In this document: one piece after another, positions 6,499-28,211 of the stretch
Numbering within the stretch: the stretch's first letter is position 1
Layout: every line of letters starts with the position of its first letter
DNA from: Massilia sp. Root418
GTDB lineage: Bacteria; Pseudomonadota; Gammaproteobacteria; Burkholderiales; Burkholderiaceae_D
NCBI RefSeq assembly: GCF_001425265.1
Contig: NZ_LMEC01000001.1
Span: forward strand, 826,036-890,035
Direction of reading: 5' to 3'
DNA length: 64,000 nucleotides
Program-made: the position numbers and the translations under genes
Notes under the pieces: generated by a model
Told to the model about the DNA's origin: nothing
What the model saw: the letters and a program-made list of their open reading frames with translations, nothing else
Database searches by the model: none

Positions 6499-7224
6499 TC
6501 AGTCGTCCGTGCCGCCGCCAAGGTAAGTGGCATGCACCCGCGCGTCCCGGGCCAGCTCGGGGGACGCGCCGGCCAGCGACACCTGCCCCAGCTCCAGCAC
6601 CACGCCCCGGTCGGAGCTGCGCAGCGCTGCCAGCGCATTCTGCTCGACCAGGATGATAGAGATGCCGTCGTCCCGCAGCGCGCGCACGATGGCCAGGATT
6701 TCCGTGACGATCTTCGGCGCCAGGCCGAGGCTCGGTTCATCGAGCATCAGCACGCGCGGCTCCGCCATCAGCGCGCGGCCCAGCGCCAGCATCTGGCGTT
6801 CGCCGCCGGACAGCGTGTTGGAGCGCTGGGTGCGCCGCTCGGCCAGGCGCGGGAAGCGGTGGTAGACGCCGTCGAGCTTGCGCCGGCGTGCCGCCGAGGA
6901 ATCCCGTTTGCTGTAGCTGCCCAGCAGCAGGTTGTCCAGCACCGACATGTCGCCGAACAGTTCGCGCTGTTCCGGCACCAGGCACAGGCCGCGGCGGACG
7001 CGCTCTTCGACGTCAACGCCGTCCAGCGACTCGCCGTCCATCCGCACGGCGCCGCGCGCGGGCAGCAGGCCGATGGCGGCCGCCAGCAGCGATGTCTTGC
7101 CGGCGCCGTTCGGTCCGATGACGGACACGATTTCCCTGGGCATCAGCTTCAGCGAGATGCCGCGCACCGCCTCGACCTGCCCATAGTTCACCTGCAAGTT
7201 CTCTATTTCCAGAATCGGGTTCAC
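6499..7224 (-). CDS. ABC transporter ATP-binding protein, LivF type
   Basis: One of two ATPases of a branched-chain-amino-acid-type (HAAT) importer; it binds ATP on the cytoplasmic face. Walker A is GPNGAGKTS, the signature is LSGGERQML and Walker B is VLMLDEPSLGLA. The GTG start at 7224 overlaps the stop of the LivM-LivG gene by four bases (GTGA) and has GGGAG upstream; a longer ATG-initiated form would lack that coupling. About 241 residues, normal for LivF. Because it is next to an aromatic catabolic island, the cargo may be an aromatic acid rather than an amino acid (inference). Confidence 0.93.
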   Translation of the reverse strand: MNPILEIENLQVNYGQVEAVRGISLKLMPREIVSVIGPNGAGKTSLLAAAIGLLPARGAVRMDGESLDGVDVEERVRRGLCLVPEQRELFGDMSVLDNLLLGSYSKRDSSAARRRKLDGVYHRFPRLAERRTQRSNTLSGGERQMLALGRALMAEPRVLMLDEPSLGLAPKIVTEILAIVRALRDDGISIILVEQNALAALRSSDRGVVLELGQVSLAGASPELARDARVHATYLGGGTDD

Positions 7225-9065
7225 GCTGCATCTCCCATGTACGCTGCCTGCTTCTTGTCGTCGCATTGTTCGTCGGCCAGGTCGCCGCCCAGGTAGGCCG
7301 CCTGCACGCTGGCGTCGCGCCGCACCGCGGCGGGAGCGCCCTCCATCAGTTTGCTGCCGAAGTTCATCACGACCAGGCGATCAACCAGCTTCATCACAAA
7401 GTCCATGTCGTGTTCGACGATCATGATCGTCACGCCCTGGCGGCGCAGTTGCTTCAGCAGTTCGGCCAGTTCCTGCTTTTCGCCATGGCGCAGGCCAGCG
7501 GCCGGCTCGTCCAGCACCAGCATCACCGGGTCGGCCATCAGCGCGCGGGCGATTTCTAGCAGGCGCTGCGTGCCGAGCGGCAGCGCGCCCGCCAGTTCAT
7601 GCTCGCGACCGGCCAAGCCGATGCGCGCCAGCTGCGTGCGCGCCTCGACGAAGATCTGCGCTTCCTCGCGCTGGTCCAGGCCCAGGCCCGCAGCGAGCAC
7701 GCCGCTGCGGGTACGCCCATGGGCGCCCAGCGCGACGTTGTCGAGCAGACTCATCTGGGGGCGCAGCTTGACGTGCTGGAAGGTGCGTCCCATGCCGAGC
7801 TGGGCGATGTCGCGCTGGGACAGTTTAGTCACGTCGCGGCCCATGAAGGACACCGCGCCGGAGCTGAGCCCGATGGCGCCGGTCAGCAGGTTGAACATGG
7901 TCGACTTGCCCGCGCCGTTCGGCCCGATCAGGCCCACGATCTCGCCGGCAGCGATGTCGAAGCTGACGTCGTTGACGGCCACCAGGCCGCCGAAGCGCCT
8001 GGTCACCTTGCGGGCACTGAGGATGGTCTTGCCGGCGGCCGGCTGGCTGCGCCGGGGCAGCGGCGGCAGATCGGCGCCCCCAGCCGCGCTCGCGGCAAGC
8101 GGCGCCCGGCGGTACCTGGCGGCCAGTTTCACCGCATAGCCGCACACGCCGGCCCGGGCATGGTGCAGCAGCAACAGGAAAAGCAGGCTGAAGGCGATGA
8201 CTTCCAGCTGGGTGCCGCGGCTTGACAGCAGCGGCAGCACATCCTGCAGGGTATTGCGCAGCAGGATGACGATGGCCGAGCCGACAATCGCTCCCGGCAG
8301 TTGCAGCAGACCGCCGACCACCGCCATCAGCAGGTAATTGATGCTGCCGTGGACATCGAACGTCGACGGGCTGATGTAGCGGCTGTTGTGCGCATAGAGC
8401 CAGCCTGCCAGGCCAGCCACCAGCGCCGAATAGACGAACAGGGTCAGGCGCAGGCGGTAGCCGTCCGCCCCCACGCTTGCCAACAGGCTGTTGCCTCCCC
8501 GCAGGCTGCGCATGGCGCGGCCCTGGCGCGAGCGCAGCAGATTGCTGCTGAACAGGTACACCAGGCCCAGCATGCCCCAGATCAGGTAGTACATGGCACC
8601 CGACGACGCGAGCGAAAAGCCGGCGACCTGGATCGGGGCGATGTCGCTCATGCCGGTATGGCTGCCCAGCGCCTCGATATTGCTCAGGACGAGCGGAACC
8701 GACAGGCCCCAGGCAATCGTGCTGATCGGCAGGTAGTGGCTGCCGAGCCGCAAGGTCAGCATGCCGATGACCAATGCCGCGCCGCCCGTCATGAGCAACG
8801 CGAACAACAGGCCCAGCCAGGGCGACAGGGCGTGCGCCGAGGTCAGCCACGCGGTCGAATAGGCGGCGATGCCGACAAAGGCTGCCTGGCCGAACGAGGT
8901 CACGCCGCCGACGCCGGTCAGCATCACCAGGCCCAGGGCGACCATGGCGCCGATGCCGATATCGTTCATCAGGCCGATGCCGAAATTGCCAAGTGCCAGC
9001 GGCAGCAGCAACAGCGCGGCGACGACCGCCAGCGGCGCGTGGCGGTGAAGGAAAATGCTGCTCAT
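7221..9065 (-). CDS. Fused ABC permease/ATPase, LivM-LivG type
   Basis: 614 residues joining two usually separate subunits. Residues 1 to about 315 are the hydrophobic LivM permease, with many membrane helices and the VMLTGVGGVTSFGQAAFVG region typical of LivM. Residues from about 345 to the end are a LivG ATPase with Walker A GPNGAGKSTMFN and Walker B VLDEPAAGL. The signature region reads LPLGTQRLLEIARAL. The linker is Ala/Pro/Arg rich. It overlaps livH by four bases (ATGA) and livF by four, so the three are one translation-coupled unit. Fusions of this kind are known in HAAT importers of proteobacteria. Confidence 0.93.
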   Translation of the reverse strand: MSSIFLHRHAPLAVVAALLLLPLALGNFGIGLMNDIGIGAMVALGLVMLTGVGGVTSFGQAAFVGIAAYSTAWLTSAHALSPWLGLLFALLMTGGAALVIGMLTLRLGSHYLPISTIAWGLSVPLVLSNIEALGSHTGMSDIAPIQVAGFSLASSGAMYYLIWGMLGLVYLFSSNLLRSRQGRAMRSLRGGNSLLASVGADGYRLRLTLFVYSALVAGLAGWLYAHNSRYISPSTFDVHGSINYLLMAVVGGLLQLPGAIVGSAIVILLRNTLQDVLPLLSSRGTQLEVIAFSLLFLLLLHHARAGVCGYAVKLAARYRRAPLAASAAGGADLPPLPRRSQPAAGKTILSARKVTRRFGGLVAVNDVSFDIAAGEIVGLIGPNGAGKSTMFNLLTGAIGLSSGAVSFMGRDVTKLSQRDIAQLGMGRTFQHVKLRPQMSLLDNVALGAHGRTRSGVLAAGLGLDQREEAQIFVEARTQLARIGLAGREHELAGALPLGTQRLLEIARALMADPVMLVLDEPAAGLRHGEKQELAELLKQLRRQGVTIMIVEHDMDFVMKLVDRLVVMNFGSKLMEGAPAAVRRDASVQAAYLGGDLADEQCDDKKQAAYMGDAA

Positions 9066-10117
9066 TGGTTGATCTCCTCGACTTCATCTTCGGAATGGAC
9101 GGCGTAGTACGAGCGCACCAGCAGCACTGGAATCAGGACGCTGAACACGATCACGTCCTTCAGGGCGCCGCTCCAGAAGGCCCCGAAGCTCTCCAGGATG
9201 CCGACTGCGACCGCGCCCAGCGCGGTCAGCGGGTAGCTCGTCAGGCCGCCGATGATGGCCGCGACAAAGGCTTTCAGGCCTATGGTGAAGCCCGAGTCGT
9301 AGTACAGGGTCGTGATGGGTGCGATCAGCACGCCGATCAGACCGGCAAGCAGCGAAGCGCACAGGTAGGCCATCAGTGCCGTGCGCGCCGGGCGCACGCC
9401 GACCAGGCGGGCGCCAACGCGGTTGACGGCGGTAGCCCGCAATGCCTTGCCGACAAGGGTGTATTCGAAGAACAGGAAGAACATCAGCCCCAGCAAGCCG
9501 GCGGCGCCCACCATCAGGACGGTTTGCATGGACACGGCGAAGGTCGCGCCCAGGTCACAGCTGCCGTCCAGCAGCACCTGCGTGCGGTGGCCTTCGGGAC
9601 CAAAGAACATCAGGCCCAGGCCGGCGAACAGGAAATGCATGACCAGCGCGGCCATCAGCAGCACCAGCGACGAGGCATCGGCGATCGGCTGCAGCAGGAT
9701 GCGCGCCGCCAGCGGAGCGATCGGCACCACCAGCAGGATGGCGCACAGCACCTTCAATGCTGCGGGCGCCTGGGTCCCCGCCAACGACCAAGCGGCCACA
9801 CAAGGCAAGGCGGGCAGGATGCCCCAGCCAAGCACGGCAGCCGGGATTTTGCCATAATCGTGCGCCCTGATCAGCCGCAGCACTTCCAGCCCCACCGCGA
9901 TGGCGGCCAGCAGCGCCACCATCCACACCGTGGGCGGGAGGTGGCCGCTTTCAAAAGCCGCCAGGCTCAGCGCGGCGAACACGGCCACGTCACCGAACGG
10001 CACGAACACAACCCGGGTCACGGAAAACACCAGCACCATGCCGATGCCGGCCAGCAGGTAGATCGCGCCATTGGCGACGCCATCCGTTAAAAGTATCAAT
10101 ATCACATCGCTATCCAT
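9062..10117 (-). CDS. ABC transporter permease, LivH type
   Basis: Inner-membrane permease of a HAAT importer, about 351 residues with many membrane helices. It begins DGVANGAIYLLAGIGMVLVF and carries GLKAFVAAIIGGLTS near the end, both family hallmarks. ATG codons at 10120 and 10117 are adjacent; GGAG is five bases from the second, so 10117 was chosen. It is first of a three-gene importer unit and follows the tautomerase gene by 89 bases on the same strand. The matching periplasmic binding protein is probably the one at 26189. Confidence 0.92.
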   Translation of the reverse strand: MDSDVILILLTDGVANGAIYLLAGIGMVLVFSVTRVVFVPFGDVAVFAALSLAAFESGHLPPTVWMVALLAAIAVGLEVLRLIRAHDYGKIPAAVLGWGILPALPCVAAWSLAGTQAPAALKVLCAILLVVPIAPLAARILLQPIADASSLVLLMAALVMHFLFAGLGLMFFGPEGHRTQVLLDGSCDLGATFAVSMQTVLMVGAAGLLGLMFFLFFEYTLVGKALRATAVNRVGARLVGVRPARTALMAYLCASLLAGLIGVLIAPITTLYYDSGFTIGLKAFVAAIIGGLTSYPLTALGAVAVGILESFGAFWSGALKDVIVFSVLIPVLLVRSYYAVHSEDEVEEINQ

Positions 10118-10206
10118 CATGTCTCCACATCTGCTCTCTGCTCTCTGCTCTTAATTGTTGTTAAGGTCGGTCCGGGTTGCAAGCTGCAGGCCTGCCCGCG
10201 CGCCTG

Positions 10207-10614
10207 TCAACGCGCTGCGGCCGCCATGGCGCTGCGGTCGATGCCCCTGCCTAGCGATTGGGCCGTCTGGCCGGCGATGCCGAAATCCGTATTGGGGATG
10301 TCCTTGATGATGATGCGGACGCCGCCGCTGTCGACGCCGGGCAGTGCCGCCATCACAACGGTGAGCCCCGCTATCAGGCGGCGCTTCTGCTCAATACTGC
10401 GGCCTGCGATCAGGAAAGCCTGGGCGACGCTGATCGCCGCGCCCGTCTTGCCGCCGATGCCCGCGTCATGGGTTGCCACTTCGTTCAGGATGACCCTGAT
10501 CGAATCGATGGGAGCGTCGATCGCGTCCACGACTGCGTGAGTCATGGCCTCGATAAGGTCGTGCTTTTGCCGGTGGCTGTATCCCTCGGCGATAAATGCT
10601 TCTATGGTCGGCAT
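10207..10614 (-). CDS. Tandem 4-oxalocrotonate-tautomerase-like protein
   Basis: About 135 residues, twice the usual 4-OT size of about 62. The first half starts MPTIEAF; removing Met exposes the catalytic Pro1 of this family. The second half (ISVAQAFLIAGRSIEQKRRL...) repeats the fold but has no N-terminal Pro, so only the first half can carry the classic catalytic base. Starting at 10614 rather than 10617 gives Met-Pro and puts AGGA seven bases upstream. Its place ahead of the importer and beside a catechol pathway suggests keto-enol isomerisation of a ring-cleavage or indole-derived intermediate (inference). Confidence 0.82.
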   Translation of the reverse strand: MPTIEAFIAEGYSHRQKHDLIEAMTHAVVDAIDAPIDSIRVILNEVATHDAGIGGKTGAAISVAQAFLIAGRSIEQKRRLIAGLTVVMAALPGVDSGGVRIIIKDIPNTDFGIAGQTAQSLGRGIDRSAMAAAAR

Positions 10615-10617
10615 CAT

Positions 10618-10962: not shown

Positions 10963-12018
10963 ATGAATAAGACTTTGCGCGCGCTGTGCGCCGCCCCGCT
11001 TTGCACGGCCGCGATGGCCCATGCGGACCCGGTTACGATCTACGGCCTCATCGATGCGGGCCTGACCCGCTATTCGGACAGTGCTGTCGGCACCGGCGGA
11101 CCGCGCCCGCTGACCAAGATGGATACCGGTGTCGCCAACGCGAACCGCATCGGCTTCAAGGGCACGGAACAGCTGGGCGATGGCGTGAGCGCGTTCTTCA
11201 CGCTGGAGACCGGCTACACGCTGGACGACGGCGCGCTGGGCCAGGGCGGACTGATCTTCGGCCGCCAGGCATTCGTCGGCATCGCCAACAAGGTCGGCAG
11301 TGTCAGTGTGGGGCGCCACTACGACTTCATGATCAACCAGAACGCCTACTCCACCGGCGCGGCGACAGTGGCCGGACTGCTCGCTTTTGGCCTGCACGCG
11401 AGCCCGCGCACGGCCGGGGTGCTGAACGACCGCATCTACGCGGGGGACCGGGTCAACAATTCGGTCAAATTCCAGAGCCAGAGCTTCGGCGGCTGGAGCG
11501 TCGGCGCGCTGTATGGCCTGGGTGAAGTGCCGGGCAACAGCGCGGCGGGACGCACCTGGAGCATGCGCCTCGCTTATGACGCCGGCCCGGCCAGCGCCGG
11601 CTTTGCGGTCACGGACCTGCGCGACGCGGCGGGCGTCTATACAACGCGCATCTACGGCCTGGGCGGCAGCTACAAACTGGGCAGCGTGCGCGCCTTCAGC
11701 CTGCTGACGCGGGTTACCAATAATAGCGGCCGCCAGCTCGAAGCGAACAATGCGGAGATCGGCGCCACCTGGTCCACCTCGCCCACGGTCGACCTTTCCG
11801 CCGGCGTGCAGCGTCAATCGCGCAACAACGCCATCCGCAGCGCAAACCAGCTCACCCTGGTTGCGAACTACAAGCTGTCGACCCGCACCAACGTGTACGC
11901 CGTAGGCGCATTCCTGCGCGACCGCGGCTTCCCCGCCCAGACCACTGCGGCGGTCGGCGTACCGGATGCGGACGGCACCCAGAACGCCCTGCGCATCGGC
12001 GTGCGCCACTTGTTCTGA
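10963..12018 (+). CDS. Gram-negative porin
   Basis: 351 residues. A signal peptide ends at MAHA, then the mature protein starts DPVTIYGLIDAGLTRYSDS, the typical opening of 16-strand trimeric porins of Burkholderiales. It contains NRIGFKGTEQLGDG and a C-terminal Phe (GVRHLF) needed for outer-membrane assembly. AGGAG lies ten bases ahead of the ATG. As part of the catabolic island it probably lets the aromatic substrate or other small anions cross the outer membrane; the substrate choice is inferred from context only. Confidence 0.92.
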   Translation: MNKTLRALCAAPLCTAAMAHADPVTIYGLIDAGLTRYSDSAVGTGGPRPLTKMDTGVANANRIGFKGTEQLGDGVSAFFTLETGYTLDDGALGQGGLIFGRQAFVGIANKVGSVSVGRHYDFMINQNAYSTGAATVAGLLAFGLHASPRTAGVLNDRIYAGDRVNNSVKFQSQSFGGWSVGALYGLGEVPGNSAAGRTWSMRLAYDAGPASAGFAVTDLRDAAGVYTTRIYGLGGSYKLGSVRAFSLLTRVTNNSGRQLEANNAEIGATWSTSPTVDLSAGVQRQSRNNAIRSANQLTLVANYKLSTRTNVYAVGAFLRDRGFPAQTTAAVGVPDADGTQNALRIGVRHLF

Positions 12019-12039: not shown

Positions 12040-12975
12040 TCAGCCCTGGCGGCCGTATTCCTGCAGCAGGTCGACAATGGCCTGCCGCATCCAGCGGTTG
12101 CCGGCGTCGCCTTCGAAGTCCTGGTGCCAGTGCAGCGTCACCTCGACTTCCGGAATCGCAACCGGCAACCCGTACAGCGAAAACTGTTCCTGCGCATTGA
12201 ACAGCCGCGCGATCCGGTACGGCAGGGTCACCGCCAGGTCGGAACGGGCCAGGATGCTGGGCAGGACGGAGAAATGGGGAATATCGAGCGCGATGGGACG
12301 GTCGATGCCGTTGGCACGGAACACCTCCTCCAGCTGGTGGTGGCTGCTCTCGGCCGATTGCACCTGCACGTGGGACAGGCCAAGGAATTCCTCCACCCCG
12401 AGCGCCGGCCCGGCCGGCAGGCCCGGCCGCCTGCGCGTCAGGCAAACATAGGTTTCCCTGAACAGCAGCGTATGGCGCGTCATCGATTTGAGCAGCGGCA
12501 GGTTGCCGATGGCGAAGTCGAGCTGTCCCGTGCGCAACGATTCCTCGATTGCACTCTTGCGCACCTGCTCGACATGGATGCGCGCCAACGGCGCGTGTGC
12601 CCGCATGTATTCGCACAGCGGCGGCAGAAAGAACATCTCGGCAGCATCGGTCATCGACAGCGTGAATGTACGCGTGCTCAGCGCCGGCACGAACTGCTCG
12701 GCATAGCTGAGCGCATCTTGCACCGCCTGCAGCGCGCGGGTGATCGGCTTGGCCAGTTCCAGCGCCGCGGGCGTGGGCTGCATGCCGGTCTTGGTGCGGA
12801 TAAACAGCGGGTCGTTGAAGATCGTGCGCAGGCGCCGCAGCGCATAGCTGACCGCTGGCTGGGACAGGTGCAAGCGGTCGCCCGCCAGCGTCAGGCTGCG
12901 CTCATCCGAAATCGCCTGGAATACGCGCAGCAAATTCAGATCCATGTTGTTGAAGGTCGTCATACCAAAATCCAT
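12040..12975 (-). CDS. LysR-family regulator, NahR/PcpR-like (copy 1)
   Basis: 311 residues. The N-terminal helix-turn-helix includes SLTLAGDRLHLSQPAVSYAL, followed by NDPLFIRTKTGMQPT, which is typical of the NahR/NodD branch of LysR regulators that respond to aromatic acids. The C-terminal part is the effector-binding domain. It is divergent from the reductase-cat operon, with a shared motif copy in the 114 bases between them, a classic LysR arrangement. ATG codons at 12963 and 12945 are alternative starts. It resembles the regulator at 22728, so the island has two related regulators. Confidence 0.9.
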   Translation of the reverse strand: MDFGMTTFNNMDLNLLRVFQAISDERSLTLAGDRLHLSQPAVSYALRRLRTIFNDPLFIRTKTGMQPTPAALELAKPITRALQAVQDALSYAEQFVPALSTRTFTLSMTDAAEMFFLPPLCEYMRAHAPLARIHVEQVRKSAIEESLRTGQLDFAIGNLPLLKSMTRHTLLFRETYVCLTRRRPGLPAGPALGVEEFLGLSHVQVQSAESSHHQLEEVFRANGIDRPIALDIPHFSVLPSILARSDLAVTLPYRIARLFNAQEQFSLYGLPVAIPEVEVTLHWHQDFEGDAGNRWMRQAIVDLLQEYGRQG

Positions 12976-14080: not shown

Positions 14081-15223
14081 ATGAGCCATACACCTATTCC
14101 TATCGACAGCGTCGACGTCCTGCTGCTCGACCTGCCTACGATCCGGCCGCACCAGTTGTCGGTCACCACGATGCGCCGGCAAAAGCTTGTGCTGGTGCGC
14201 GTACGGGCCGCCGACGGCGTGACCGGCTGGGGCGAAGCGACCACGATCGGCGGACTTGCCTATGGCGAGGAAAGCCCGGAGAGCATGCGCGTCAATATCG
14301 ACGCCTATATGGCGCCATTGCTGCTTGGCGCGGACGCCACCAGCCCGGGCGCGCGCATGCGGGACTTACGCACCCACCTGCAAGGCAACCGGTTTTCGCT
14401 GTGCGCCATCGAAACCGCGCTGTACGACGCGCAGGCGCGCCGGCTGGGCGTGCCCCTGAGCAGCTTGTTCGGCGGCCGCGTACGCGACAGCCTGCCGGTC
14501 GCCTGGACACTGGCCAGCGGCGACACCGAGCGCGACATCGCCGAAGCCGAACGCATGCTGGAACAAAAGCGCCACCGCATCTTCAAGCTGAAGATCGGCG
14601 CGCGCGACGTGCTTGCCGACGTGGCACACGTGGCGGCCATCAAGCGCGCGCTAGGCGACCATGCCAGCGTGCGCGTCGACGTCAACCAGGCCTGGTCCGA
14701 AACCGACGCCATGCTGGGCATGGGCATGCTGGAACAGGCCGGGGTGGATCTCGTCGAACAGCCCATCGCCGCCGGCAACGACGAAGGCATGCGCCGCCTG
14801 CGCCGCATGAACCGCATCCCCCTGATGGCGGACGAAGCCCTGCACGGACCGACCGACGCCTTCCGGCTCGCCGAATGCCGCGCCAGCGATGTGTTTGCGA
14901 TCAAGATCACCCAGTCCGGCGGCCTGCGCGGCGCCCAGCAGGTGGCCGCGATCGCCGAGGCGGCCAATGTCGGCCTGTATGGCGGCACCATGCTGGAAGG
15001 CGCGGTCGGCACGATCGCCTCGGCCCAGCTGTTCTCCACGTTCACGGAACTGGCCTGGGGCACCGAGCTGTTCGGACCGCTGCTGCTGACCGAGGACATT
15101 CTGCGCACGCCGCTGGACTACCGCGATTTCTCGCTGCACCTGCCTTCCGGCCCCGGCCTGGGCATCGACATCGATGAAGAAAAGGTCGCCTTCCTGCAGC
15201 GCCGTTCCGGCCGTGGCGCCTGA
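14081..15223 (+). CDS. catB: Muconate cycloisomerase
   Basis: 380 residues, enolase superfamily. Converts cis,cis-muconate to muconolactone in the cytoplasm. Catalytic features are visible: KLK at Lys169/Lys171, metal ligands Asp200 (RVDVNQ), Glu226 (VEQP) and Asp251/Glu252 (MADEA), and Lys275 (IKITQSGG). Family length is normal. It lies between the reductase gene and catC, giving the order catB-catC-catA. Its specificity for plain rather than chloro-muconate is assumed from the neighbours. Confidence 0.95.
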   Translation: MSHTPIPIDSVDVLLLDLPTIRPHQLSVTTMRRQKLVLVRVRAADGVTGWGEATTIGGLAYGEESPESMRVNIDAYMAPLLLGADATSPGARMRDLRTHLQGNRFSLCAIETALYDAQARRLGVPLSSLFGGRVRDSLPVAWTLASGDTERDIAEAERMLEQKRHRIFKLKIGARDVLADVAHVAAIKRALGDHASVRVDVNQAWSETDAMLGMGMLEQAGVDLVEQPIAAGNDEGMRRLRRMNRIPLMADEALHGPTDAFRLAECRASDVFAIKITQSGGLRGAQQVAAIAEAANVGLYGGTMLEGAVGTIASAQLFSTFTELAWGTELFGPLLLTEDILRTPLDYRDFSLHLPSGPGLGIDIDEEKVAFLQRRSGRGA

Positions 15224-15250: not shown

Positions 15251-15541
15251 ATGTTATTCAAAGTGAGCATGACCGTCCGCCTGCCGCACACCATGCCGGC
15301 CGACGAAGCCGACCGCCTGAAAGCCAGCGAGCGGGCCGTCGCCGAAGCGCTGCAGCGCAGCGGCAAGTGGCGCCACCTGTGGCGCGTGGCCGGCCGCTAC
15401 GCCAACGTCAGCATCTTCGACGTCGCCGGCAACGCCGAGCTGCACGACCTGCTGCTGACGCTGCCGCTCTTCCCGTACATGGACATCGAGGTGCAAGCGC
15501 TGTGCCGCCACCCGTCGTCGATCCATGACGACGACCGCTGA
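15251..15541 (+). CDS. catC: Muconolactone delta-isomerase
   Basis: 96 residues, the usual length. Isomerises muconolactone to 3-oxoadipate enol-lactone. It starts MLFKVSMTVRLPHTMP and has the conserved RVAGRYANVSIFDV and LPLFPYMDIEV stretches. It begins 28 bases after catB with an AAGGA-type ribosome site. The active form in this family is a decamer of ferredoxin-like subunits. Confidence 0.96.
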   Translation: MLFKVSMTVRLPHTMPADEADRLKASERAVAEALQRSGKWRHLWRVAGRYANVSIFDVAGNAELHDLLLTLPLFPYMDIEVQALCRHPSSIHDDDR

Positions 15542-15584
15542 TTACACCACCCCGCACGACAACCCAGACCAAAGGAGACAACCC

Positions 15585-20397: not shown

Positions 20398-20893
20398 ATC
20401 GACACTCCCCGTCGCCGACCTGACAACGCCGCTGGGCCGCGCGATCGCGTTCATCTGGCGCGAAGCCGAGCTGCTGGATAACAAGGACTACGACGCCTGG
20501 GGCGCCCTGTGGGCCGAGGACGGCCGCTACGTGGTGCCGATCGATCCCGACACGGACGACTTCGAGAGCCAGCTGAACTACGCCTACGACGATGCCCGCA
20601 TGCGCCGGCTGCGCATCGAGCGCTTCACGTCCGGCTATTCGATGTCGGCCGCCGACTCGGCCAGGACGGTCAGGACGGTGTCGCGCTTTTCGCTGGTGGG
20701 GATCGACAACGACATCGTCGAAGTGCGGTCGGCCCAGTTGCTGGCGGCGCACAAGCGCGGCGCGACCACGCTGTTCGCGGCGAACCTGACGCACCGGGTG
20801 CGCCTGCTGCCAGACGGCGCCCTGCTGGACCGGAAAGTGGTCCGGCTGATCAATTCACAGGAGGCGCTGAACGCGCTGGGTTTCCTGCTGTAG
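20390..20893 (+). CDS. Rieske oxygenase small subunit (IacD-like)
   Basis: 167 residues with the NTF2-like fold of ring-hydroxylating oxygenase beta subunits (FIWREAELLDNKDYDAWGAL near the start). It has a structural role in the alpha3-beta3 hexamer. The start overlaps the large-subunit stop by eight bases, so the two are made together. Family length is normal. Confidence 0.9.
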   Translation: MTESTLPVADLTTPLGRAIAFIWREAELLDNKDYDAWGALWAEDGRYVVPIDPDTDDFESQLNYAYDDARMRRLRIERFTSGYSMSAADSARTVRTVSRFSLVGIDNDIVEVRSAQLLAAHKRGATTLFAANLTHRVRLLPDGALLDRKVVRLINSQEALNALGFLL

Positions 20894-20987: not shown

Positions 20988-22646
20988 ATGAGCATGAGCA
21001 CGAGCACGAGCAGAACAATGAAACGGCACTGCGCTGGTATCGGATCCACGTTGAGGCGCTGGCCCATGTCGCTGTGGCTGGCCGGGTCAACCGCGCTGAT
21101 GGCCGGCTGCGGCAGCCCGGCCGGCGACCGCACGCTCGTGACCGTTGAAAGCGGTGTCGTCCAGGGCGCGGAGGCTGATGGCGTACTGTCGTTCAAGGGC
21201 ATTCCCTACGCGGCGGCACCGGTGGGCAACCTGCGCTGGCGCGCCACCCAGCCGGCCACGGCCTGGACCGGGACCCGTCCGGCCACCAGCTTCGGCCGCG
21301 ACTGCATGCAGCAGGTCTATCCGGGAGATGCCCTGATGATCGCGACCACGCCATCTGAAGATTGCCTGTTCGTGAACGTGTGGCGCCCCACCAGCGAGGT
21401 GCCCGCGCGCGACAAGCTGCCCGTGCTGGTCTACATCCACGGTGGCGCCTATACGACCGGCGGCAGCTCGTCGCCTGTGGTTGACGGCAAGCAGTTCGCC
21501 AAGGAAGGCGTGATGCTGGTGACCTTCAATTACCGGCTGGGCCGCTTCGGCTTTTTCGCCCACCCGGCCCTGACCGCCGAGCAGCCGAATGAACTGCAGG
21601 GCAACTACGCCTACATGGATCAGGTCGCTGCGCTGAAATGGATACAACGCAATATTGCCGCCTTTGGCGGCGATCCGGCCAATGTCACCGTGTCCGGAGA
21701 GTCGGCCGGCGGCGAGTCGGTGCACTCGCTGCTGACAACTCCGCTGGCCAAAGGACTGTTCCGCAAAGCGATCGTCCAATCGGGCAATGGCCGCGAGAAC
21801 CAGGTGTACCGGCTGTACCTGCACCGCGACCCCAAGGGCATCGGCGCCTCCGGCGAAGAAATCGGGGTAACGTTTGCAAAGACCATGGGAATTAACGATA
21901 CCGGCGCCGCCGGCCTGGCCGCGTTGCGCGCGCTGTCCGCAGACCAGGTCCAGGCCAACCTCTACCTCGGCTACAACTACGCCGGCGGCCCCATGATCGA
22001 GGGCAGGATGGTGGTCGACGAACCCGGCGTGCTGTATGCCAGGGGACAGTTCAACCCCGCTGCGATCCTAATCGGCAGCAACGACCTGGATCTCGGCTTT
22101 CCCGCACCGGCCGCGACCAAGGATGAAGCGTACGCGGTCTTCGGCGCGCAAAACCTGCAGGCCGCACGGGCCGCTTTCGATCCTCTGGGTACGGCAAGCG
22201 TCGATGCGGTGCGGGGCCAGATCGCGCGCGTGCAGCTGATGGACGAGCCTGCGCGTTTCGTGGCACGGACCTTCGCTGCCCAGGGACTGCCAGCCTACGT
22301 CTATCGCTTCTCCTACGTGGCGCAGTCGATCCGCGACAAGGTGCCGGGCGCGGTGCATGCGGCCGAAATGCCGTACGTGTTCGGCACCCTGCCGGTCACG
22401 TACGGCGCCGCCGTGACCAGCCAGGACACGACGCTGTCAAGGCTGACCACGAGCTACTGGGCGCAGTTTGTCAAGTCGGGCAATCCAAACGGCGCCGGGC
22501 TCGCCGGCTGGCCAGCCTATGCGGGCGAAAAGAACGGCCTGATGGAGTTCACTGCAGCCGGCACCGCCAAGCCGTTTGAAGCCGATCCGCTGAAAGCCCA
22601 GCTTGATCTCGTACAGGCGGTCAGCGACCGGAAAGCCGCGCAATAG
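20988..22646 (+). CDS. Secreted type-B carboxylesterase, predicted lipoprotein
   Basis: 552 residues. The N-terminus has a signal with lipobox LMAGC, so it should be attached to a membrane outside the cytoplasm. The body is a type-B carboxylesterase: nucleophile elbow GESAGG, oxyanion GGAYTTGG, and VHAAEMPYVFG holding the likely catalytic His. AAGG lies eight bases ahead of the chosen ATG. It follows the Rieske subunits by about 95 bases on the same strand. Such an enzyme could free an aromatic acid from esters outside the cell before uptake, for example conjugated auxin. That is inference; typical iac clusters are not known to include it. Confidence 0.88.
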   Translation: MSMSTSTSRTMKRHCAGIGSTLRRWPMSLWLAGSTALMAGCGSPAGDRTLVTVESGVVQGAEADGVLSFKGIPYAAAPVGNLRWRATQPATAWTGTRPATSFGRDCMQQVYPGDALMIATTPSEDCLFVNVWRPTSEVPARDKLPVLVYIHGGAYTTGGSSSPVVDGKQFAKEGVMLVTFNYRLGRFGFFAHPALTAEQPNELQGNYAYMDQVAALKWIQRNIAAFGGDPANVTVSGESAGGESVHSLLTTPLAKGLFRKAIVQSGNGRENQVYRLYLHRDPKGIGASGEEIGVTFAKTMGINDTGAAGLAALRALSADQVQANLYLGYNYAGGPMIEGRMVVDEPGVLYARGQFNPAAILIGSNDLDLGFPAPAATKDEAYAVFGAQNLQAARAAFDPLGTASVDAVRGQIARVQLMDEPARFVARTFAAQGLPAYVYRFSYVAQSIRDKVPGAVHAAEMPYVFGTLPVTYGAAVTSQDTTLSRLTTSYWAQFVKSGNPNGAGLAGWPAYAGEKNGLMEFTAAGTAKPFEADPLKAQLDLVQAVSDRKAAQ

Positions 22647-22727: not shown

Positions 22728-23660
22728 TCAGCGCGAACCCCCTGCGCAGAACATCTCCGCAATCGTCGCTCGCAGCCATGCTATGCCTGCATCCGCCGCG
22801 AACCGCTGGTGCACGTGCAGCTTGACTTCGATCGGCGGCAGGTCGAACGGGAGCGCGAGCAATCGATAGGCGCGTCCCCGGTTGAAGCGCTCCGCTATGC
22901 TGCGAGGGAACATCAAGGCCAGATCGGTGCTGCGCACAGTCTCCGGCGCGGCAATGAAATGCGGTAGCTTGAGCACCACACTGCGTTCGATATTCAACTG
23001 GCCCAGCCATTTCTCGGTCAGGCCATGGCCGGTCGCGCCACTGTCGGTTACCACGTACCGCAAGCGCCCCAGCGCCTCGCGGGTCAACGCGCGCTTGCCG
23101 AGCGGATGCCCCGCACGCAGCATGCACACATACTCATCATGGAACAAAGTCTGCGACTGACAGTCGCCGGACAGGCCTGGGACATAGCCCAGCGCTAGGT
23201 CGATCTCGCCCGAACGCATCCCGCTTTCGACGTTTGCCAAAGGGATCGGCACGATCTCGATCGCGATGCCCGGCGCGTTTTCCTGGAACGCAGACAGCAG
23301 CGGCGGCAGGAAGTAGAAAGCGGACATGTCCGACATCGAAATGCGGAACCGCCGGGTCGACGTCGCGGCGTCGAAGCCGGCATGGCGCTGCATCGCCCCA
23401 TACAGCATATCGAGCGCACGGTCGATCGGACCATGCAGGCGCATGGCCGCTTCCGTCGGCTGCATGCCCTCCGCGGTGCGCACGAAGAGCGGGTCGCCGA
23501 AGGCATCGCGCAAACGCCGCAAGCCGTGGCTGACAGCCGGCTGGGACAACGCAAGACGGTCCGCAGCGAGCGTCAGGCTGTGCGTCTCCCACACCGCCAG
23601 AAAAACCCGCATCAGGTTCAGGTCCACGGTACCAGTATTCATTTTCTGCATAGTGCCCAT
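22728..23660 (-). CDS. LysR-family regulator, NahR/PcpR-like (copy 2)
   Basis: 310 residues. The helix-turn-helix contains SLTLAADRLALSQPAVSHGL and then GDPLFVRTAEGMQPTEAA, close to the regulator at 12040. The remainder is the LysR effector-binding domain. It is divergent from the V4R-monooxygenase operon, from which 142 bases separate it. Two related regulators flanking one pathway may respond to different intermediates, or one may be a recent duplicate. Confidence 0.9.
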   Translation of the reverse strand: MGTMQKMNTGTVDLNLMRVFLAVWETHSLTLAADRLALSQPAVSHGLRRLRDAFGDPLFVRTAEGMQPTEAAMRLHGPIDRALDMLYGAMQRHAGFDAATSTRRFRISMSDMSAFYFLPPLLSAFQENAPGIAIEIVPIPLANVESGMRSGEIDLALGYVPGLSGDCQSQTLFHDEYVCMLRAGHPLGKRALTREALGRLRYVVTDSGATGHGLTEKWLGQLNIERSVVLKLPHFIAAPETVRSTDLALMFPRSIAERFNRGRAYRLLALPFDLPPIEVKLHVHQRFAADAGIAWLRATIAEMFCAGGSR

Positions 23661-23802: not shown

Positions 23803-24315
23803 ATGAGCGCATTTTGGGACCGCATCCGCATTGGCGATCCAGCCGGCAGCATCTTCGATGGCGATCGCCGCTACCTGATGATGCGCACCGACGTCCTGAT
23901 GGGCATGGTGCAGGAAATGCCAGCCGCGCTGCGCGCCCAAGCCCTCGATGCGCTGGCAGCATCGGCGTACCGGCACGGTGGCCAGAGCGTGCGTGCCTAC
24001 CGCGAGGCCGGCAGCCTTGACGGCCTCGCGCCTACGGTGATCGAAGGCGCCGCCGCATTCGGCTGGGGCACCTGGCACTTCACCGCAGGCCGGCTGCAGG
24101 CAGAACTCGAAGTCGAGAACAGCCCGTTTGCGGCCGGATACGGCCCGTCCGAGATACCCGTTTGCGCACCGATACGCGGCATCTTCCACAGCCTTGCACA
24201 GACTGTGCTGGGCAGCGACGTGGAGGTGGCCGAAACACACTGCGCCGCGCAGCACGGCGGCCGCTGCCGCTTCGTTGCACGGCGTACCGATCACATCAAC
24301 GCGCCGCTTTCCTGA
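23803..24315 (+). CDS. V4R (4-vinyl reductase) domain protein
   Basis: 170 residues made almost wholly of one V4R domain, with a C-terminal pair HCAAQHGGRCRF that may bind metal. V4R domains bind small hydrocarbon or aromatic ligands in XylR/DmpR-type regulators and also occur alone. No DNA-binding domain is present. The start at 23803 has GGGAG seven bases upstream. It precedes the monooxygenase gene by 58 bases in the same operon. A ligand-binding or carrier role for the pathway substrate is an inference. Confidence 0.78.
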   Translation: MSAFWDRIRIGDPAGSIFDGDRRYLMMRTDVLMGMVQEMPAALRAQALDALAASAYRHGGQSVRAYREAGSLDGLAPTVIEGAAAFGWGTWHFTAGRLQAELEVENSPFAAGYGPSEIPVCAPIRGIFHSLAQTVLGSDVEVAETHCAAQHGGRCRFVARRTDHINAPLS

Positions 24316-24373: not shown

Positions 24374-25558
24374 ATGTCCGCATCCACCCTGTACCATCCC
24401 GCCACACCCACCCCACCGGTCCCCTTAGTGCAGCCTATGTCCGGCGCGGCGCCGGCGGCGCTTGACAAGGTATTGCTCGAAGTGGCCCAGCGCCGGGAAG
24501 AATTCACCGCGCTCGGCCATGTGCCGCGCGAGGTGGTCGACAGCTTCAAGCAAGCCGGCATCTACCGCGCCGGCACGCCGCGCTGCTTCGGCGGCGACGC
24601 CATGCCGCCGGCACAGTTCCTGCGCATCGTCGAGCGCATCGCGGCCGTTGACGGCTCGGCCGCCTGGGTCGCCAGCTTCGGTTCGGCAAACACCTACCTG
24701 GCCGCGCTTCCGAAGGCAACCCAGGCGTTGATCTATGCGAGCGGCCCGGACCAGGTGTTCGCCGGCGCACTGTATCCGCCGCAGCCGGCGGTGCGCATGC
24801 CCGACGGCTGGCAAGTCACCGGCCAGTGGAAGTTCGCCAGCGGCTGCATGGGCGCCAGCTGGCTTGGCGTGGGCATCGGCGGCGGCCCCGGCGCCAAACC
24901 GCTGGCCGCGATCCTGCCGGCGGAGCGGGTCGAAATCGTCGAGAACTGGGATGTGGTGGGGCTGGAAGGCACCGGCAGCCACGACCTGCGCGTCAGCGGC
25001 CAGTTCGTGGCGGACGACTGGACGTTCCAGCGCGGCAGCGGCGCCGTCATCGATGAACCGCTGTACCGCTATCCCGCCACCTGTTACCAGGCGCAGGTCC
25101 ACGCGGCAGTCAATATCGGCCTGGCGCGCGCGGCGCTGGCAATCGTCAACGATATGTCGGCCGGCAAAGTCACCACCACCGGCGCGCCGCGCATGGCCGA
25201 CCGGGCCTACTTCCGTATTGAACTGGCCAGGGCGCAGGCGCAGTTCGACAGCGCGCGGGCGTACTTCTACGAATCCGCCGAGGCGGTCTACGACGCCATC
25301 GTCGCCGGCAATGACGCCTCGCCGGAGCAGGTGGCCACCTTGAAATTGAGTGCCACGCATGCCGCACAAACCGCCGCCGACGTGGTGCGGGACGCCTACC
25401 GCCTGGGCGGTATGGCTTCCATCTACAGCAAGCATCCCCTGCAGCGGATCGTGCGCGATTCGATGGTCGTGACACAGCACGCCTTCCTCAGCAGCGGCAA
25501 CTACGACGGCGCCGGCGCGGTACTGGTCGGTGTTCCACCCTTCCCCGGTTTCCTGTGA
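24374..25558 (+). CDS. Acyl-CoA-dehydrogenase-fold flavin monooxygenase (IacA-like)
   Basis: 394 residues. Group D two-component monooxygenase with the acyl-CoA dehydrogenase fold. It has IVERIAAVDGSAAWVASFGS near residue 80, a WKFASGCMGASW flavin-site region and a C-terminal helical domain (YRLGGMASIYSKHPLQRIVR). It needs reduced flavin, supplied by the reductase gene seven bases downstream. IacA, which makes the first attack on the indole ring of indole-3-acetate, and the indole oxygenases IifC/IndA are of this type. AAGGAG precedes the ATG. It is the key entry enzyme of the proposed pathway. Confidence 0.87.
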   Translation: MSASTLYHPATPTPPVPLVQPMSGAAPAALDKVLLEVAQRREEFTALGHVPREVVDSFKQAGIYRAGTPRCFGGDAMPPAQFLRIVERIAAVDGSAAWVASFGSANTYLAALPKATQALIYASGPDQVFAGALYPPQPAVRMPDGWQVTGQWKFASGCMGASWLGVGIGGGPGAKPLAAILPAERVEIVENWDVVGLEGTGSHDLRVSGQFVADDWTFQRGSGAVIDEPLYRYPATCYQAQVHAAVNIGLARAALAIVNDMSAGKVTTTGAPRMADRAYFRIELARAQAQFDSARAYFYESAEAVYDAIVAGNDASPEQVATLKLSATHAAQTAADVVRDAYRLGGMASIYSKHPLQRIVRDSMVVTQHAFLSSGNYDGAGAVLVGVPPFPGFL

Positions 25559-25565
25559 GGCAGCC

Positions 25566-26117
25566 ATGAACGCCGATACCGCACCAACTGCTGCGCACGA
25601 CGCCGGCCCCGAGGCGCTGCGCCTGCGCTTCCGCGAAGCGATGGCCAATCTGCCGGCGGCCGTCAATATCGTCACCACGGCCGGCCCGGCCGGCCGCTGC
25701 GGCATCACCGCCACGGCAGTCTGTTCGGTCAGCGACACGCCGCCCACGCTGCTGTTCTGCATCAACCGCAACAGCACCACGCTCTCGGCATTCGAGCAAA
25801 ACCGGCAGCTGTGCATCAACGTGCTGCCGGCCGAATGCGACGAACTGGCCAGGCACTTCGCGGGCATGAGCGGCCTGTCGATGGAAGAGCGGTTCCAGGC
25901 CGCGAACTGGATCGCCGGCGGCGCCGCCGTGCCACGGCTGGAACACGCTCTGGTCAGTCTCGCCGGCCGCGTGGTCGACGTGGCGCAGGTTGGCACGCAT
26001 GCGGTCATTTTCGCCCAGATCGACGACATCGCCATCCGCCAGCAGGCCGACGCGCTGGTGTATTTCGACCGCACTTTCCGCCGTGTTACGCGGCAAGCAG
26101 AAGCACAACCGGCGTGA
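25566..26117 (+). CDS. Flavin reductase (IacG-like)
   Basis: 183 residues, split-beta-barrel flavin reductase (GITATAVCSVSDTPPTLLFC, then FEQNRQLCINVLPAE). It uses NAD(P)H to reduce free FMN or FAD for the monooxygenase encoded just upstream, a standard two-component pair. The start at 25566 was chosen for GAGG five bases upstream and because it follows the monooxygenase stop by seven bases. Confidence 0.9.
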   Translation: MNADTAPTAAHDAGPEALRLRFREAMANLPAAVNIVTTAGPAGRCGITATAVCSVSDTPPTLLFCINRNSTTLSAFEQNRQLCINVLPAECDELARHFAGMSGLSMEERFQAANWIAGGAAVPRLEHALVSLAGRVVDVAQVGTHAVIFAQIDDIAIRQQADALVYFDRTFRRVTRQAEAQPA

Positions 26118-26188: not shown

Positions 26189-27343
26189 ATGAAAAACCGC
26201 TCTCTCATCCGAATCGCCGCGCTGGCCGCGGTATTGTCCTCGCCATTGCTGGGCTGGGCCTCCGACCTCAAACTGGGTTTCATCACCTCGCTGTCGGGTC
26301 CCTCGTCCTCGCTGGGGATTCCCTACTCGAAGGGCTTGCAGGCCGGCGTAACGTTCCGGCCCGATATCGACGGCAAGAAGGTGCAGGTCGTGCAGCTCGA
26401 CGATGCTTCCGATCCGACCACGGCGGCGCGCAATGCCCGCAAGCTGATCGTGGAGGACAATGTCGACGCGCTGATCGGCACCGCGGGCACGCCATCGGGC
26501 ATCGCGATCGCCGGCGTCGCCCGCGAACTGAAGGTGCCCTTCATCTCGGTCGCCCAGGTCAAGCCCGACGCCGGTGCGGGCGGCTGGATGGTCAACGTAC
26601 CGCAGGCCACGCCGCTGATGGTCGAGACGCTCGTCGCGCACATGCAGCGCTCCGGCGTCAAGACCGTCGCCTACATCGGTTTCTCCGATGCGTGGGGCGA
26701 TATCGTCTACGACGCCCTGCTCGCCGCCGCGAAGAAGAACAACATCAAGGTCGTGACCAATGAACGCTATGCACGCAACGACAGCTCGGTGACCGGCCAG
26801 GCACTGAAAATCGTCGCTGCCAAGCCGGATGCGGTACTGAGCGGCACCTCCGGCACCCCCGGCGCGCTGGCCTACCTCGGACTGGCCGCGCGCGGATACC
26901 GCGGCAAGATCTACGGCACCCATGGCATCATCAATCCCGACTTCATCCGTGTCGGGGGGGCTGCGCTGGACAACCTGTATGCGCCCACCGGACCGGTGGT
27001 GGTGGCCGACCAGCTACCCGCCACTCATCCATCGCGTAAAATCTCGCTCGATTTCCGCAGCGCGTACAAGAAGACATTCCAGGCCGATGCGACCGATGCG
27101 TTCGCACCCTACGCGTTCGATGCCTGGCTGATCTTCCTGGATGCCGCGCAGCGCACGATGGCACAGAAGCAGCCCGGCACGCCGGAGTTCCGTGCGGCGC
27201 TGCTCAATGCACTCCTGTCCACCAATGAGCTGGTCGGCACGCAAGGGGTGTACAACTTCCGCCCAGAAAATATCTTCAGTACCGATCCGCGTTCGGTCGT
27301 CATGGTCAGGCTCGAAAAAGGCAAGTGGCAATACCTGCCCTGA
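26189..27343 (+). CDS. Periplasmic binding protein of the HAAT importer (LivK type)
   Basis: 384 residues. Signal peptide cut near LGWASD, then SDLKLGFITSLSGPSSSLGI, the opening of type-I periplasmic binding proteins. It carries GTAGTPSGIAIAGVA and HGIINPDFI. It should bring a ligand to the LivH/LivM-LivG/LivF importer encoded at 6499-10117, which has no binding protein of its own. It lies 71 bases after the flavin reductase on the same strand. The cargo is likely the aromatic substrate of the pathway (inference). Confidence 0.9.
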   Translation: MKNRSLIRIAALAAVLSSPLLGWASDLKLGFITSLSGPSSSLGIPYSKGLQAGVTFRPDIDGKKVQVVQLDDASDPTTAARNARKLIVEDNVDALIGTAGTPSGIAIAGVARELKVPFISVAQVKPDAGAGGWMVNVPQATPLMVETLVAHMQRSGVKTVAYIGFSDAWGDIVYDALLAAAKKNNIKVVTNERYARNDSSVTGQALKIVAAKPDAVLSGTSGTPGALAYLGLAARGYRGKIYGTHGIINPDFIRVGGAALDNLYAPTGPVVVADQLPATHPSRKISLDFRSAYKKTFQADATDAFAPYAFDAWLIFLDAAQRTMAQKQPGTPEFRAALLNALLSTNELVGTQGVYNFRPENIFSTDPRSVVMVRLEKGKWQYLP

Positions 27344-27385: not shown

Positions 27386-27410
27386 CCGCACTTTTGTGAG
27401 ACCAATCACC

Positions 27411-28211
27411 ATGCCCGATCTATTGAATCGAATCCTCGCCGTCAAGCGCGCCGAAATCTCAGCCGCGTGCCGGCTGCAAGATTTGGCCAGCTTGCGCAGC
27501 GAGGTGGAATCCGCACCCGCAGCAGAGCGCCGGACCCGCGGCTTCCACGACAGCCTGCGCCGGAAAATCGCAGCCGGCCAATCCGGCGTGATCGCCGAGA
27601 TCAAGCGAGCCGCCCCATCGGCCGGCCTGCTGCAGCCCGATTTTCAGCCGGATGCGCTCGCCGCCAGTTACGCCGGCCACGGCGCCGCCTGCCTCTCGGT
27701 GCTCACCGATGCACAATTCTTCGGCGGCACGCCGGGCGACCTGCGCAAGGCGCGCACGGCCTGTGCGCTGCCCGTACTACGCAAGGACTTCATCATCAGT
27801 CCATATCAGGTGTACCAGGCGCGCGCATGGGGCGCCGATTGCATTCTGCTGATCGTGGCCGCGCTCGATCCGGCACTGATGGCCGACCTGGAGTGCCTGG
27901 CCCACGCGCTGGGAATGGACGTGCTGGTCGAGGCGCATGACCGGCAGGAACTCGATGCGGCCCTGCGGCTCCGCACACGGCTGATCGGTATCAATAACCG
28001 CAACCTGCGCACACTCGCCACCAGCGTGCAAACGACCATCGACCTGCGCTCCAGCATTCCACCGGACAGGTTGCTGGTCACCGAATCGGGTATCCGCACG
28101 CCCGGCGACGTTTCGCTGCTGCGCGACGCAGGCGTTCACGCCTACCTGGTGGGTGAGGCCTTCCTGCGCACCCCGGATCCGGGTGCGGAAATGGCCCGGC
28201 TTTTCGGATGA
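27411..28211 (+). CDS. trpC: Indole-3-glycerol-phosphate synthase
   Basis: 266 residues. Converts CdRP (carboxyphenylamino-deoxyribulose phosphate) to indole-3-glycerol phosphate in tryptophan synthesis. All catalytic residues are present: Glu63/Lys65 (IAEIKRAAPS), Lys125 (LRKDFI), Glu174 (LVEAHD), Asn195 (GINNRNL) and Glu225/Ser226 (TESGI). It is the normal family length and has no fused domain. It is unusual here: no other trp gene is near and it ends a catabolic gene series. Whether it is the only trpC of the genome or an extra copy cannot be told from the window. Confidence 0.93.
   Translation: MPDLLNRILAVKRAEISAACRLQDLASLRSEVESAPAAERRTRGFHDSLRRKIAAGQSGVIAEIKRAAPSAGLLQPDFQPDALAASYAGHGAACLSVLTDAQFFGGTPGDLRKARTACALPVLRKDFIISPYQVYQARAWGADCILLIVAALDPALMADLECLAHALGMDVLVEAHDRQELDAALRLRTRLIGINNRNLRTLATSVQTTIDLRSSIPPDRLLVTESGIRTPGDVSLLRDAGVHAYLVGEAFLRTPDPGAEMARLFG

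What the first reader, a model, noticed from the sequence alone, without database searches (positions are those of the whole stretch)
6499..28211. Variant indole-3-acetate-type (iac) catabolic island without iacB, iacE or a MarR regulator
The window shows IacA-, IacG-, IacH-, IacI-, IacC-, IacD- and IacF-like genes plus catB-catC-catA-pcaD, which is the known iac core leading to catechol. The usual short-chain dehydrogenase (IacE), the small IacB and a MarR-type IacR are not visible. In their place are two NahR-like LysR regulators, a tandem tautomerase, a V4R protein, a secreted esterase and a HAAT importer. The route may differ in its middle steps, or the substrate may be another indole.
Basis: partly seen in the sequence, partly recalled or inferred. 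Interest (0 to 1): 0.85.

Follow-up and report, generated by a model that had tools for sequence, protein, structure and literature searches.

The report
Auxin-degradation gene island without IacE
A bacterium related to Pseudoduganella carries a gene island that likely degrades an indole acid such as the plant hormone auxin to catechol, yet two standard proteins of that route (IacB and IacE) were not found in its genome, and a small protein predicted to bind aromatic compounds is encoded next to the first enzyme instead.

Summary
Window 6499-28211 encodes IacA, C, D, F, G, H and I homologues, catB-catC-catA-pcaD, a HAAT importer, a porin and two LysR regulators. No IacB or IacE was found in the whole genome: IacB has no match, and SDR hits are at most 41% identical to IacE. 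Missing MarR control is not special: relatives and the published LB400/PsJN systems use LysR. The distinctive part is LysR2//V4R-iacA-iacG-SBP. In 74 genomes of the genus, three IacA genes sit with IacB-IacE and three with V4R; none has both or neither. V4R has the fold and the Cys-Glu-Cys-Cys residues of the MopR/PoxR phenol sensor, without AAA+ or DNA-binding parts. The Rieske oxygenase is IacC-type (92% to Massilia sp. HP4), so the lower pathway is probably normal. Most likely the island takes IAA or a close relative to catechol, with the IacE step (Ox-IAA to DOAA) done by IacA/V4R; step and substrate are inferred. Cautions: LB400, whose IacA is of a related group, has IacB and IacE; two strains carry the V4R module beside a full IacA-IacB-IacE set, which favours another substrate. 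New variant of a known kind.

The parts
6499..7266 (-). HAAT importer ATPase
   Evidence: Pfam ABC_tran; 93% in G681, 85% in G700
7221..9065 (-). HAAT importer permease-ATPase fusion
   Evidence: Pfam BPD_transp_2 + ABC_tran
9062..10120 (-). HAAT importer permease
   Evidence: Pfam BPD_transp_2
10207..10617 (-). tandem 4-oxalocrotonate-type tautomerase
   Evidence: Pfam and NCBIfam; also in loci with IacB and IacE at 41-52%
10963..12018 (+). porin
   Evidence: Pfam Porin_4
12040..12975 (-). LysR1, counterpart of the LysR regulator near the iac genes of relatives
   Evidence: Pfam; 63-71% in loci L009-L024
13090..14049 (+). iacF, oxygenase reductase
14081..15223 (+). catB, muconate cycloisomerase
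   Evidence: TIGR02534 over cut-off
15251..15541 (+). catC, muconolactone isomerase
   Evidence: Pfam MIase
15525..16496 (+). catA, catechol 1,2-dioxygenase (start approximate)
   Evidence: TIGR02439 over cut-off
16486..17310 (+). pcaD, enol-lactone hydrolase (start approximate)
   Evidence: TIGR02427 over cut-off
17410..17931 (+). iacI, SnoaL-like
17928..19085 (+). iacH, amidase
   Evidence: Pfam Amidase; 45% to A. baumannii IacH
19108..20397 (+). iacC, Rieske oxygenase alpha subunit
   Evidence: 92% to Massilia sp. HP4, 96% in G681
20390..20893 (+). iacD, Rieske oxygenase beta subunit
20988..22646 (+). type-B carboxylesterase with a lipobox-like N-terminus
   Evidence: Pfam COesterase; 79-83% in G681 beside iacD
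22728..23660 (-). LysR2, divergent from V4R-iacA-iacG
   Evidence: 41-90% in the other loci with this IacA type
23803..24315 (+). V4R protein, detached MopR/PoxR-type sensor domain
   Evidence: Pfam, PDB hit MopR E 2.4e-4, model pLDDT 92.7 and Foldseek PoxR E 1e-9
24374..25558 (+). iacA, group D-type flavin monooxygenase, V4R-associated subgroup
25566..26117 (+). iacG, flavin reductase (HpaC type)
   Evidence: TIGR02296 over cut-off
26189..27343 (+). HAAT periplasmic binding protein
   Evidence: Pfam Peripla_BP_6; 94% and 77% after iacG in G681 and G700
27411..28211 (+). second trpC (indole-3-glycerol phosphate synthase); role here unexplained
   Evidence: NF001373 over cut-off; 60% to the genome's other TrpC

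Best explanation
The island likely degrades indole-3-acetate or a closely related indole acid to catechol by the iac route, in a genome in which no IacB or IacE was found, with a V4R-IacA-IacG module predicted to carry out the oxidation that IacE normally completes. Shown: the gene set and its order, the failure to find IacB and IacE genome-wide, an IacC-type Rieske oxygenase, and the exclusive pairing of IacA with either IacB or V4R in the genus. Inferred: the porin and HAAT system import the acid; IacG supplies reduced flavin to IacA, which hydroxylates C2 and then C3 to reach DOAA directly; V4R, an aromatic-binding domain with a likely zinc site and no DNA-binding or ATPase part, holds the unstable 2-hydroxy intermediate for the second attack; the amidase IacH, IacI and the IacCD-F oxygenase open and cut DOAA to catechol as in other iac strains; CatA, CatB, CatC and PcaD take catechol to 3-oxoadipate. 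LysR1 likely controls the lower genes and LysR2 the V4R-iacA-iacG-SBP operon.
For: IacB/IacE not found. In 74 genomes of the genus there are six IacA genes at E<=1e-60: three adjoin IacB and IacE (G700:C27, G712, G715) and three adjoin V4R (window, G681, G700:C18). In 96 loci given to, 90 IacA places were found; IacB lies within 2.5 kb of 78 (two loci counted twice, so 76 of 88 distinct places), V4R beside 5 of the other 12, never both; IacE lies within 4 kb of 26 of the 78 and 0 of the 12. V4R fold and conserved residues.
Against: No expression, growth or biochemical datum. An IacA of the neighbouring group g3, sharing Q239/H243, is by length and strain the listed IacA of P. xenovorans LB400, which has IacB and IacE and degrades IAA; so this broad IacA type does not by itself dispense with IacE. 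V4R also occurs beside other flavoproteins on two plasmids, and 6 of the 15 long V4R contigs, the Massilia putida chromosome among them, match no listed IacA hit. Fifty SDR matches could in principle include one with IacE activity. Seven of the 12 IacB-free IacA places have no V4R either.
Confidence: 0.45

Rival explanations
1. The module serves a different indole, most plausibly 2-oxindole-3-acetate (the plants' own oxidised auxin) or an ester-linked form cut by the esterase; one C3 hydroxylation by IacA then gives DOAA and IacE is not needed.
For: Two strains carry the V4R module in addition to an IacA-IacB-IacE set, so its job there is not the one already done. In G700 and G681 it has its own binding protein and LysR. 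IacE's known task is Ox-IAA to DOAA (PMC7225977, sections 10 and 17). [quoted passage not shown]
Against: No ligand data. The IacA tested in print acts on 3-substituted indoles, IAA included. The link from esterase to conjugates is a guess from gene position.
Confidence: 0.28
2. Ordinary IAA catabolism: IacA makes Ox-IAA and one of the genome's unlinked SDRs does the IacE step; V4R is only a ligand sensor that helps LysR2.
For: LB400 IacA is of the related g3 group and its strain grows on IAA. Fifty SDR matches in the genome, up to 41%, and IacE proteins themselves can differ to 46%. V4R's nearest structures are regulator sensor domains.
Against: In the genus, IacE at E<=1e-50 is found only beside IacB (3 of 74; up to 37 candidates scored per genome). 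V4R has no output domain and is co-oriented with iacA and iacG in the window, G681, G700 and RV1423, and follows iacA in Rhizobium rhizoryzae.
Confidence: 0.2
3. A decaying or partly assembled iac island: IacA with V4R came from an unrelated pathway and the route is not complete.
For: In the loci with the nearest Rieske (91-92%), IacA is only 55-58% identical to the window's; the arrangement differs in G681.
Against: No frame has an internal stop, and the same set is kept in P. albidiflava with iacC 96% and iacA 88% identical.
Confidence: 0.07

Closest known systems
iac (indole-3-acetate to catechol) clusters of Pseudomonas putida 1290, Caballeronia glathei and Acinetobacter
   Same: IacA, C, D, F, G, H, I homologues and cat genes; Rieske subunit of the IacC type (56-92% to loci with IacB).
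   Different: No IacB and no IacE found in the genome; IacA of another subgroup; V4R protein beside IacA; LysR instead of MarR.
Split iac system of Paraburkholderia phytofirmans PsJN / P. xenovorans LB400 (iacF-catCABR-iacRCDT1BIHE plus iacT2AG)
   Same: LysR regulator at iacC; IacA-IacG as a separate module with its own transporter; the LB400 protein P0250 shares Q239/H243.
   Different: LB400 has IacB and IacE; MFS transporters instead of a HAAT importer; no V4R in the published gene list (PMC11676955, passages).
iad clusters of Variovorax
   Same: Aerobic, Rieske oxygenase in auxin breakdown.
   Different: There the Rieske oxygenase itself attacks IAA and the pathway leads to anthranilate (PMC10374108, PMC9613470, passages); here IacA, IacG, IacI and cat genes are present and no indolepyruvate-oxidoreductase genes are.
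MopR / PoxR / DmpR phenol sensors
   Same: V4R protein has the sensor-domain fold (TM 0.73-0.81 to the 18 best chains) and aligned Cys-Glu-Cys-Cys residues.
   Different: No AAA+ ATPase and no DNA-binding domain; 170 residues; in an enzyme operon.

Membership tests
iac-type cluster | iacA, a marker gene (PMC9613470) | tested here: met
   24374-25558, 41-64% to IacA of the IacB-linked group, but in a separate subgroup
iac-type cluster | iacI, a marker gene (PMC9613470) | tested here: met
   17410-17931, 46% to A. baumannii IacI
iac-type cluster | iacB, a marker gene (PMC9613470) | tested here: not met
   no match in window or genome
iac-type cluster | iacE | tested here: not met
   only SDRs of 23-41% identity, none in the cluster
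iac-type cluster | adjacent iacC and iacD of the iac type | tested here: met
iac-type cluster | iacF, iacG and iacH | tested here: met
iac-type cluster | MarR regulator IacR (LysR in PsJN) | tested here: inconclusive
   no MarR in the cluster; LysR1 and LysR2 instead; the LysR form is known in print; MarR genes elsewhere in the genome were not searched
iac-type cluster | IAA is degraded to catechol | not testable with these tools
   no biochemistry here
iad-type cluster | iadA/iadB (indolepyruvate oxidoreductase) marker genes | tested here: not met
   no such domain among the 22 genes scanned; closest Rieske relatives are in loci with IacB; IadD by name was not compared
MopR-type aromatic sensor domain (V4R protein) | fold and zinc-site residues | tested here: met
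   that these residues bind zinc in MopR is recalled
MopR-type regulator (V4R protein) | AAA+ and DNA-binding domains | tested here: not met
   170 aa, V4R only

The most novel reading that the evidence does not exclude
A detached aromatic-sensor domain has become a working partner of a flavin monooxygenase: V4R holds the 2-hydroxyindole intermediate so that IacA hydroxylates C3 with O2 and makes DOAA in one stop, replacing both IacB and the dehydrogenase IacE. This would be a third aerobic auxin-type route beside iac and iad, and a new use of the MopR sensor fold.
Probability: 0.22. Interest if true: 0.75.

Novelty: new variant of a known kind. Interest (0 to 1): 0.55.

Why it matters
The chemistry between IAA and catechol is unsettled in the papers seen: IacB has no known role and purified IacE could not be shown to work (PMC7225977, passages and section 17). 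A natural system that lacks both, yet keeps IacA, IacG, IacH, IacI and IacCDF, is a ready-made test of which step each protein does. It also gives a marker (V4R beside IacA) by which such strains can be told from ordinary iac strains; surveys that use IacB (PMC9613470) or IacE (PMC11630574) as markers could miss or misclassify them.

Tried and rejected
Considered an iad-type or anthranilate pathway: rejected, because the Rieske subunits and the gene set are iac-type. Considered that the IacA2 residues (Y134, Q239, H243) mark a non-IAA enzyme: weakened by my own test, since a 405-residue IacA of the IAA-degrading P. xenovorans LB400 carries them and lies in the neighbouring group. Considered IacE elsewhere in the genome: no orthologue found. 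Considered indole or skatole oxygenases as the true kin: PMC7225977 (section 17) places IifC in group E and IacA in group D, and PMC13101512 (passages) places SkaA in group E, so they are another class; they were not compared by sequence here. Considered MarR loss as the key oddity: rejected, LysR is usual in relatives.

The IacB model (pLDDT 84.9) looks like a ferredoxin-like fold but Foldseek support is weak (best E 8e-4), so I did not build on a likeness to the EthD protein beside IacA in Caballeronia. Alignment A2 held a useless two-base row and was not used. The second TrpC was searched in 74 genomes: no close second copy elsewhere, one weak one in G710 (39%); its role stays unexplained. 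Three published papers sections aside, no text on Donoso 2017 (PsJN) could be read.

Weak spots of the counts: the 80 loci are the best 80 of 426 relatives, chosen by Rieske similarity, and mostly Pseudomonas; 0 of those 80 carries V4R within the DNA held. Of the 30 plasmid records with the best IacC matches (H41-H70; 54% identity or more), 26 have IacB and four do not; only one of the four, R. rhizoryzae, has V4R, so IacB can be missing without V4R. P. unamae (L026) and Burkholderia sp. 4M9327F10 (L061) lack IacB and IacE only within the DNA held. The trees used 40, 49 and 54 rows; most Pseudomonas rows, several Herbaspirillum and Rhodococcus rows, duplicates and, on, some Cupriavidus and Oxalobacteraceae rows were dropped, and the Acinetobacter row was left out of these three. 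Of the 31 rows called the IacB-linked group, 21 have a locus in which IacB was seen and 10 are database proteins of unknown context; of the 9 V4R-clade rows, three have V4R in view, two more share a contig length with a V4R protein, four are unknown.
Full report
What is there. The interval 6499-28211 is a compact catabolic island. On the minus strand: a HAAT importer (ATPase, permease-ATPase fusion, permease) and a tandem tautomerase; then a porin (+), LysR1 (-), and a plus-strand run iacF-catB-catC-catA-pcaD-iacI-iacH-iacC-iacD-carboxylesterase; then LysR2 (-) and the divergent run V4R-iacA-iacG-SBP-trpC. The flanks (nucleoside-hydrolase-like Sde182 protein and AraC regulator upstream, GH127 glycosidase and TetR regulator downstream) look unrelated. 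tblastn of the A. baumannii set supports each assignment: IacC 60%, IacI 46%, IacH 45%, IacA 42%, IacF 40%, IacD 38%, IacG 28%.

What is missing. IacB finds nothing in the window and nothing in the genome (best E 0.5; none with another IacB), and an IacB profile scores at noise in the window's six frames. IacE finds 50 short-chain dehydrogenase matches of 23-41% identity, the five best by E-value at 35-39%. IacE of Cupriavidus shares 64% with that of Streptomyces and 46% with that of A. baumannii, so identity alone leaves some room; but within the genus IacE is 81% conserved, and at E<=1e-50 it is present in 3 of 74 genomes and not in the own one (with at most 37 candidates scored per genome; one search scored all 75). 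The genome is rated 100% complete.

Relatives. The closest Rieske oxygenases (91-92%) are in Massilia sp. HP4, M. niastensis and Janthinobacterium sp. PC23-8, and their loci carry IacA-IacB-IacE with LysR1 at 65-66%. Pseudoduganella namucuonensis has the same HAAT, porin, LysR1 and catBCA-pcaD block (64-85%) but with IacA-IacB-IacE (L078). So the lower pathway looks like an ordinary iac one and the upper module is what differs. IacA of the three nearest loci is only 55-58% identical to the window's; over the whole IacB-linked group the range is 41-64% in the rows compared.

The V4R module. Within the genus (74 genomes) IacA occurs six times at E<=1e-60: beside IacB and IacE in G700:C27, G712 and G715, and beside V4R in the window's genome, G681 and G700:C18. 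G681 (contig length equal to Pseudoduganella albidiflava) has the full island, rearranged, without IacB, IacE or a second TrpC. G700 (P. namucuonensis) and G292 (Herbaspirillum sp. RV1423) have V4R-IacA-IacG on one contig and IacA-IacB-IacE on another. Rhizobium rhizoryzae has iacA-V4R followed by an ABC importer, iacCDFG, iacI, iacH and cat genes, no IacE in the 21.9 kb held, and no IacB on the whole 1.2-Mb record at E<=1e-5. V4R is rare: strong hits in 2 of 294 family genomes, 1 of 399 in the order and 3 of 74 in the genus, the own genome counted each time; weak hits bring these tallies to 3, 2 and 5. Outside iac contexts V4R also sits beside other flavoproteins on two plasmids. Of 15 close V4R homologues on contigs of at least 5 kb, 9 share the contig length of a listed IacA hit and 6 do not, the Massilia putida chromosome among the latter. 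This fits a link to flavin enzymes, mostly but not only IacA.

IacA phylogeny. Three groups come out: an IacB-linked group (31 rows, 100/97; IacB seen in the locus of 21, context unknown for 10 database proteins), a V4R clade (9 rows, 100/100) and a third group g3 (9 rows, 99/98) with Burkholderiales modules, R. rhizoryzae, a Paracoccaceae plasmid and Herbaspirillum RV1423. V4R adjacency thus occurs in two of the three groups. The last two groups share Q239 and H243 in 18 of 18 rows where the 31 others have A and L; the distant Acinetobacter IacA also has A and L. I first took these residues for a sign of another substrate. The test went against that: the LB400 protein P0250 (405 aa, on a 3.36-Mb replicon) has the same residues and falls among g3 rows; the published LB400 IacA, Bxe_B2308, is 405 aa and on C2 (that C2 is 3.36 Mb is recalled), and LB400 degrades IAA with IacB and IacE on C1.

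V4R itself. The 170-residue protein matches the MopR sensor domain (E 2.4e-4, nearly all of the score from residues 110-160). Its model is confident (pLDDT 92.7) and its 18 best structural neighbours are PoxR, MopR and DmpR phenol-sensor chains (E 1e-9 to 2e-8, TM 0.73-0.81). C121, E144, C147 and C155 are invariant in 53 of 53 homologues and align with MopR C155, E178, C181 and C189; that these bind zinc in MopR is recalled, not read. There is no output domain. A role as carrier or partner of IacA is inference; a role as sensor for LysR2 is the plain alternative.

Mechanism. In print IacA makes Ox-IAA, IacE turns it into DOAA with the new oxygen from water, IacB has no known role, and the path from DOAA to catechol is open (PMC7225977, passages, sections 10 and 17; PMC9613470, passages). 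With IacC kept at 92-96% the DOAA-level intermediate is probably still the entry to the lower path. Something must therefore reach DOAA without IacE. The conserved extra gene in the operon is V4R. I commit to IacA with V4R doing the second oxidation, at moderate confidence, and give a different starting indole such as Ox-IAA real weight, because two strains keep the V4R module beside an IacA-IacB-IacE set.

Literature. The listings showed me no paper that links V4R with iac genes or describes an iac island without IacB and IacE; no listed paper held all of indole-3-acetic acid, iac, V4R and catabolism. The library holds open-licence papers only. PMC11630574 was read in outline and the first part of its results; [quoted passage not shown]

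Verdict. Real, well delimited, a new variant of the iac kind. The biochemical claim is a testable proposal.

Noticed in passing
27411-28211: A second, intact-looking trpC (indole-3-glycerol phosphate synthase) closes the island, 60% identical to the genome's own TrpC; of 74 genomes in the genus only this one has two close copies. Why an indole-making enzyme sits in an indole-degrading island is unexplained.
   Followed up: partly
20988-22646: Type-B carboxylesterase with a lipobox-like N-terminus beside iacD, kept in P. albidiflava; might release acids from ester conjugates.
   Followed up: no
L006 3823-19685: Burkholderia multivorans carries two IacA genes in one cluster: one with IacB and IacE, one with IacG and LysR2.
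   Followed up: partly
L110 11944-14774 and L108 18930-22423: In Caballeronia an EthD-family protein is encoded near IacA; three kinds of small protein (IacB, EthD, V4R) thus occur near IacA enzymes.
   Followed up: no
L097 22579-24479 and L098 15910-18952: Stand-alone V4R genes lie next to FAD-linked and LLM-class flavin oxidoreductases in a Paracoccaceae and a Novosphingobium plasmid.
   Followed up: no
6001-28000: Ten of eleven 2-kb bins of the island have G+C of 64-69%, against 61-63% in the three bins upstream and 57-63% in the four bins downstream; but from 36 kb on most bins are again 64-70%, so this says little about origin.
   Followed up: no
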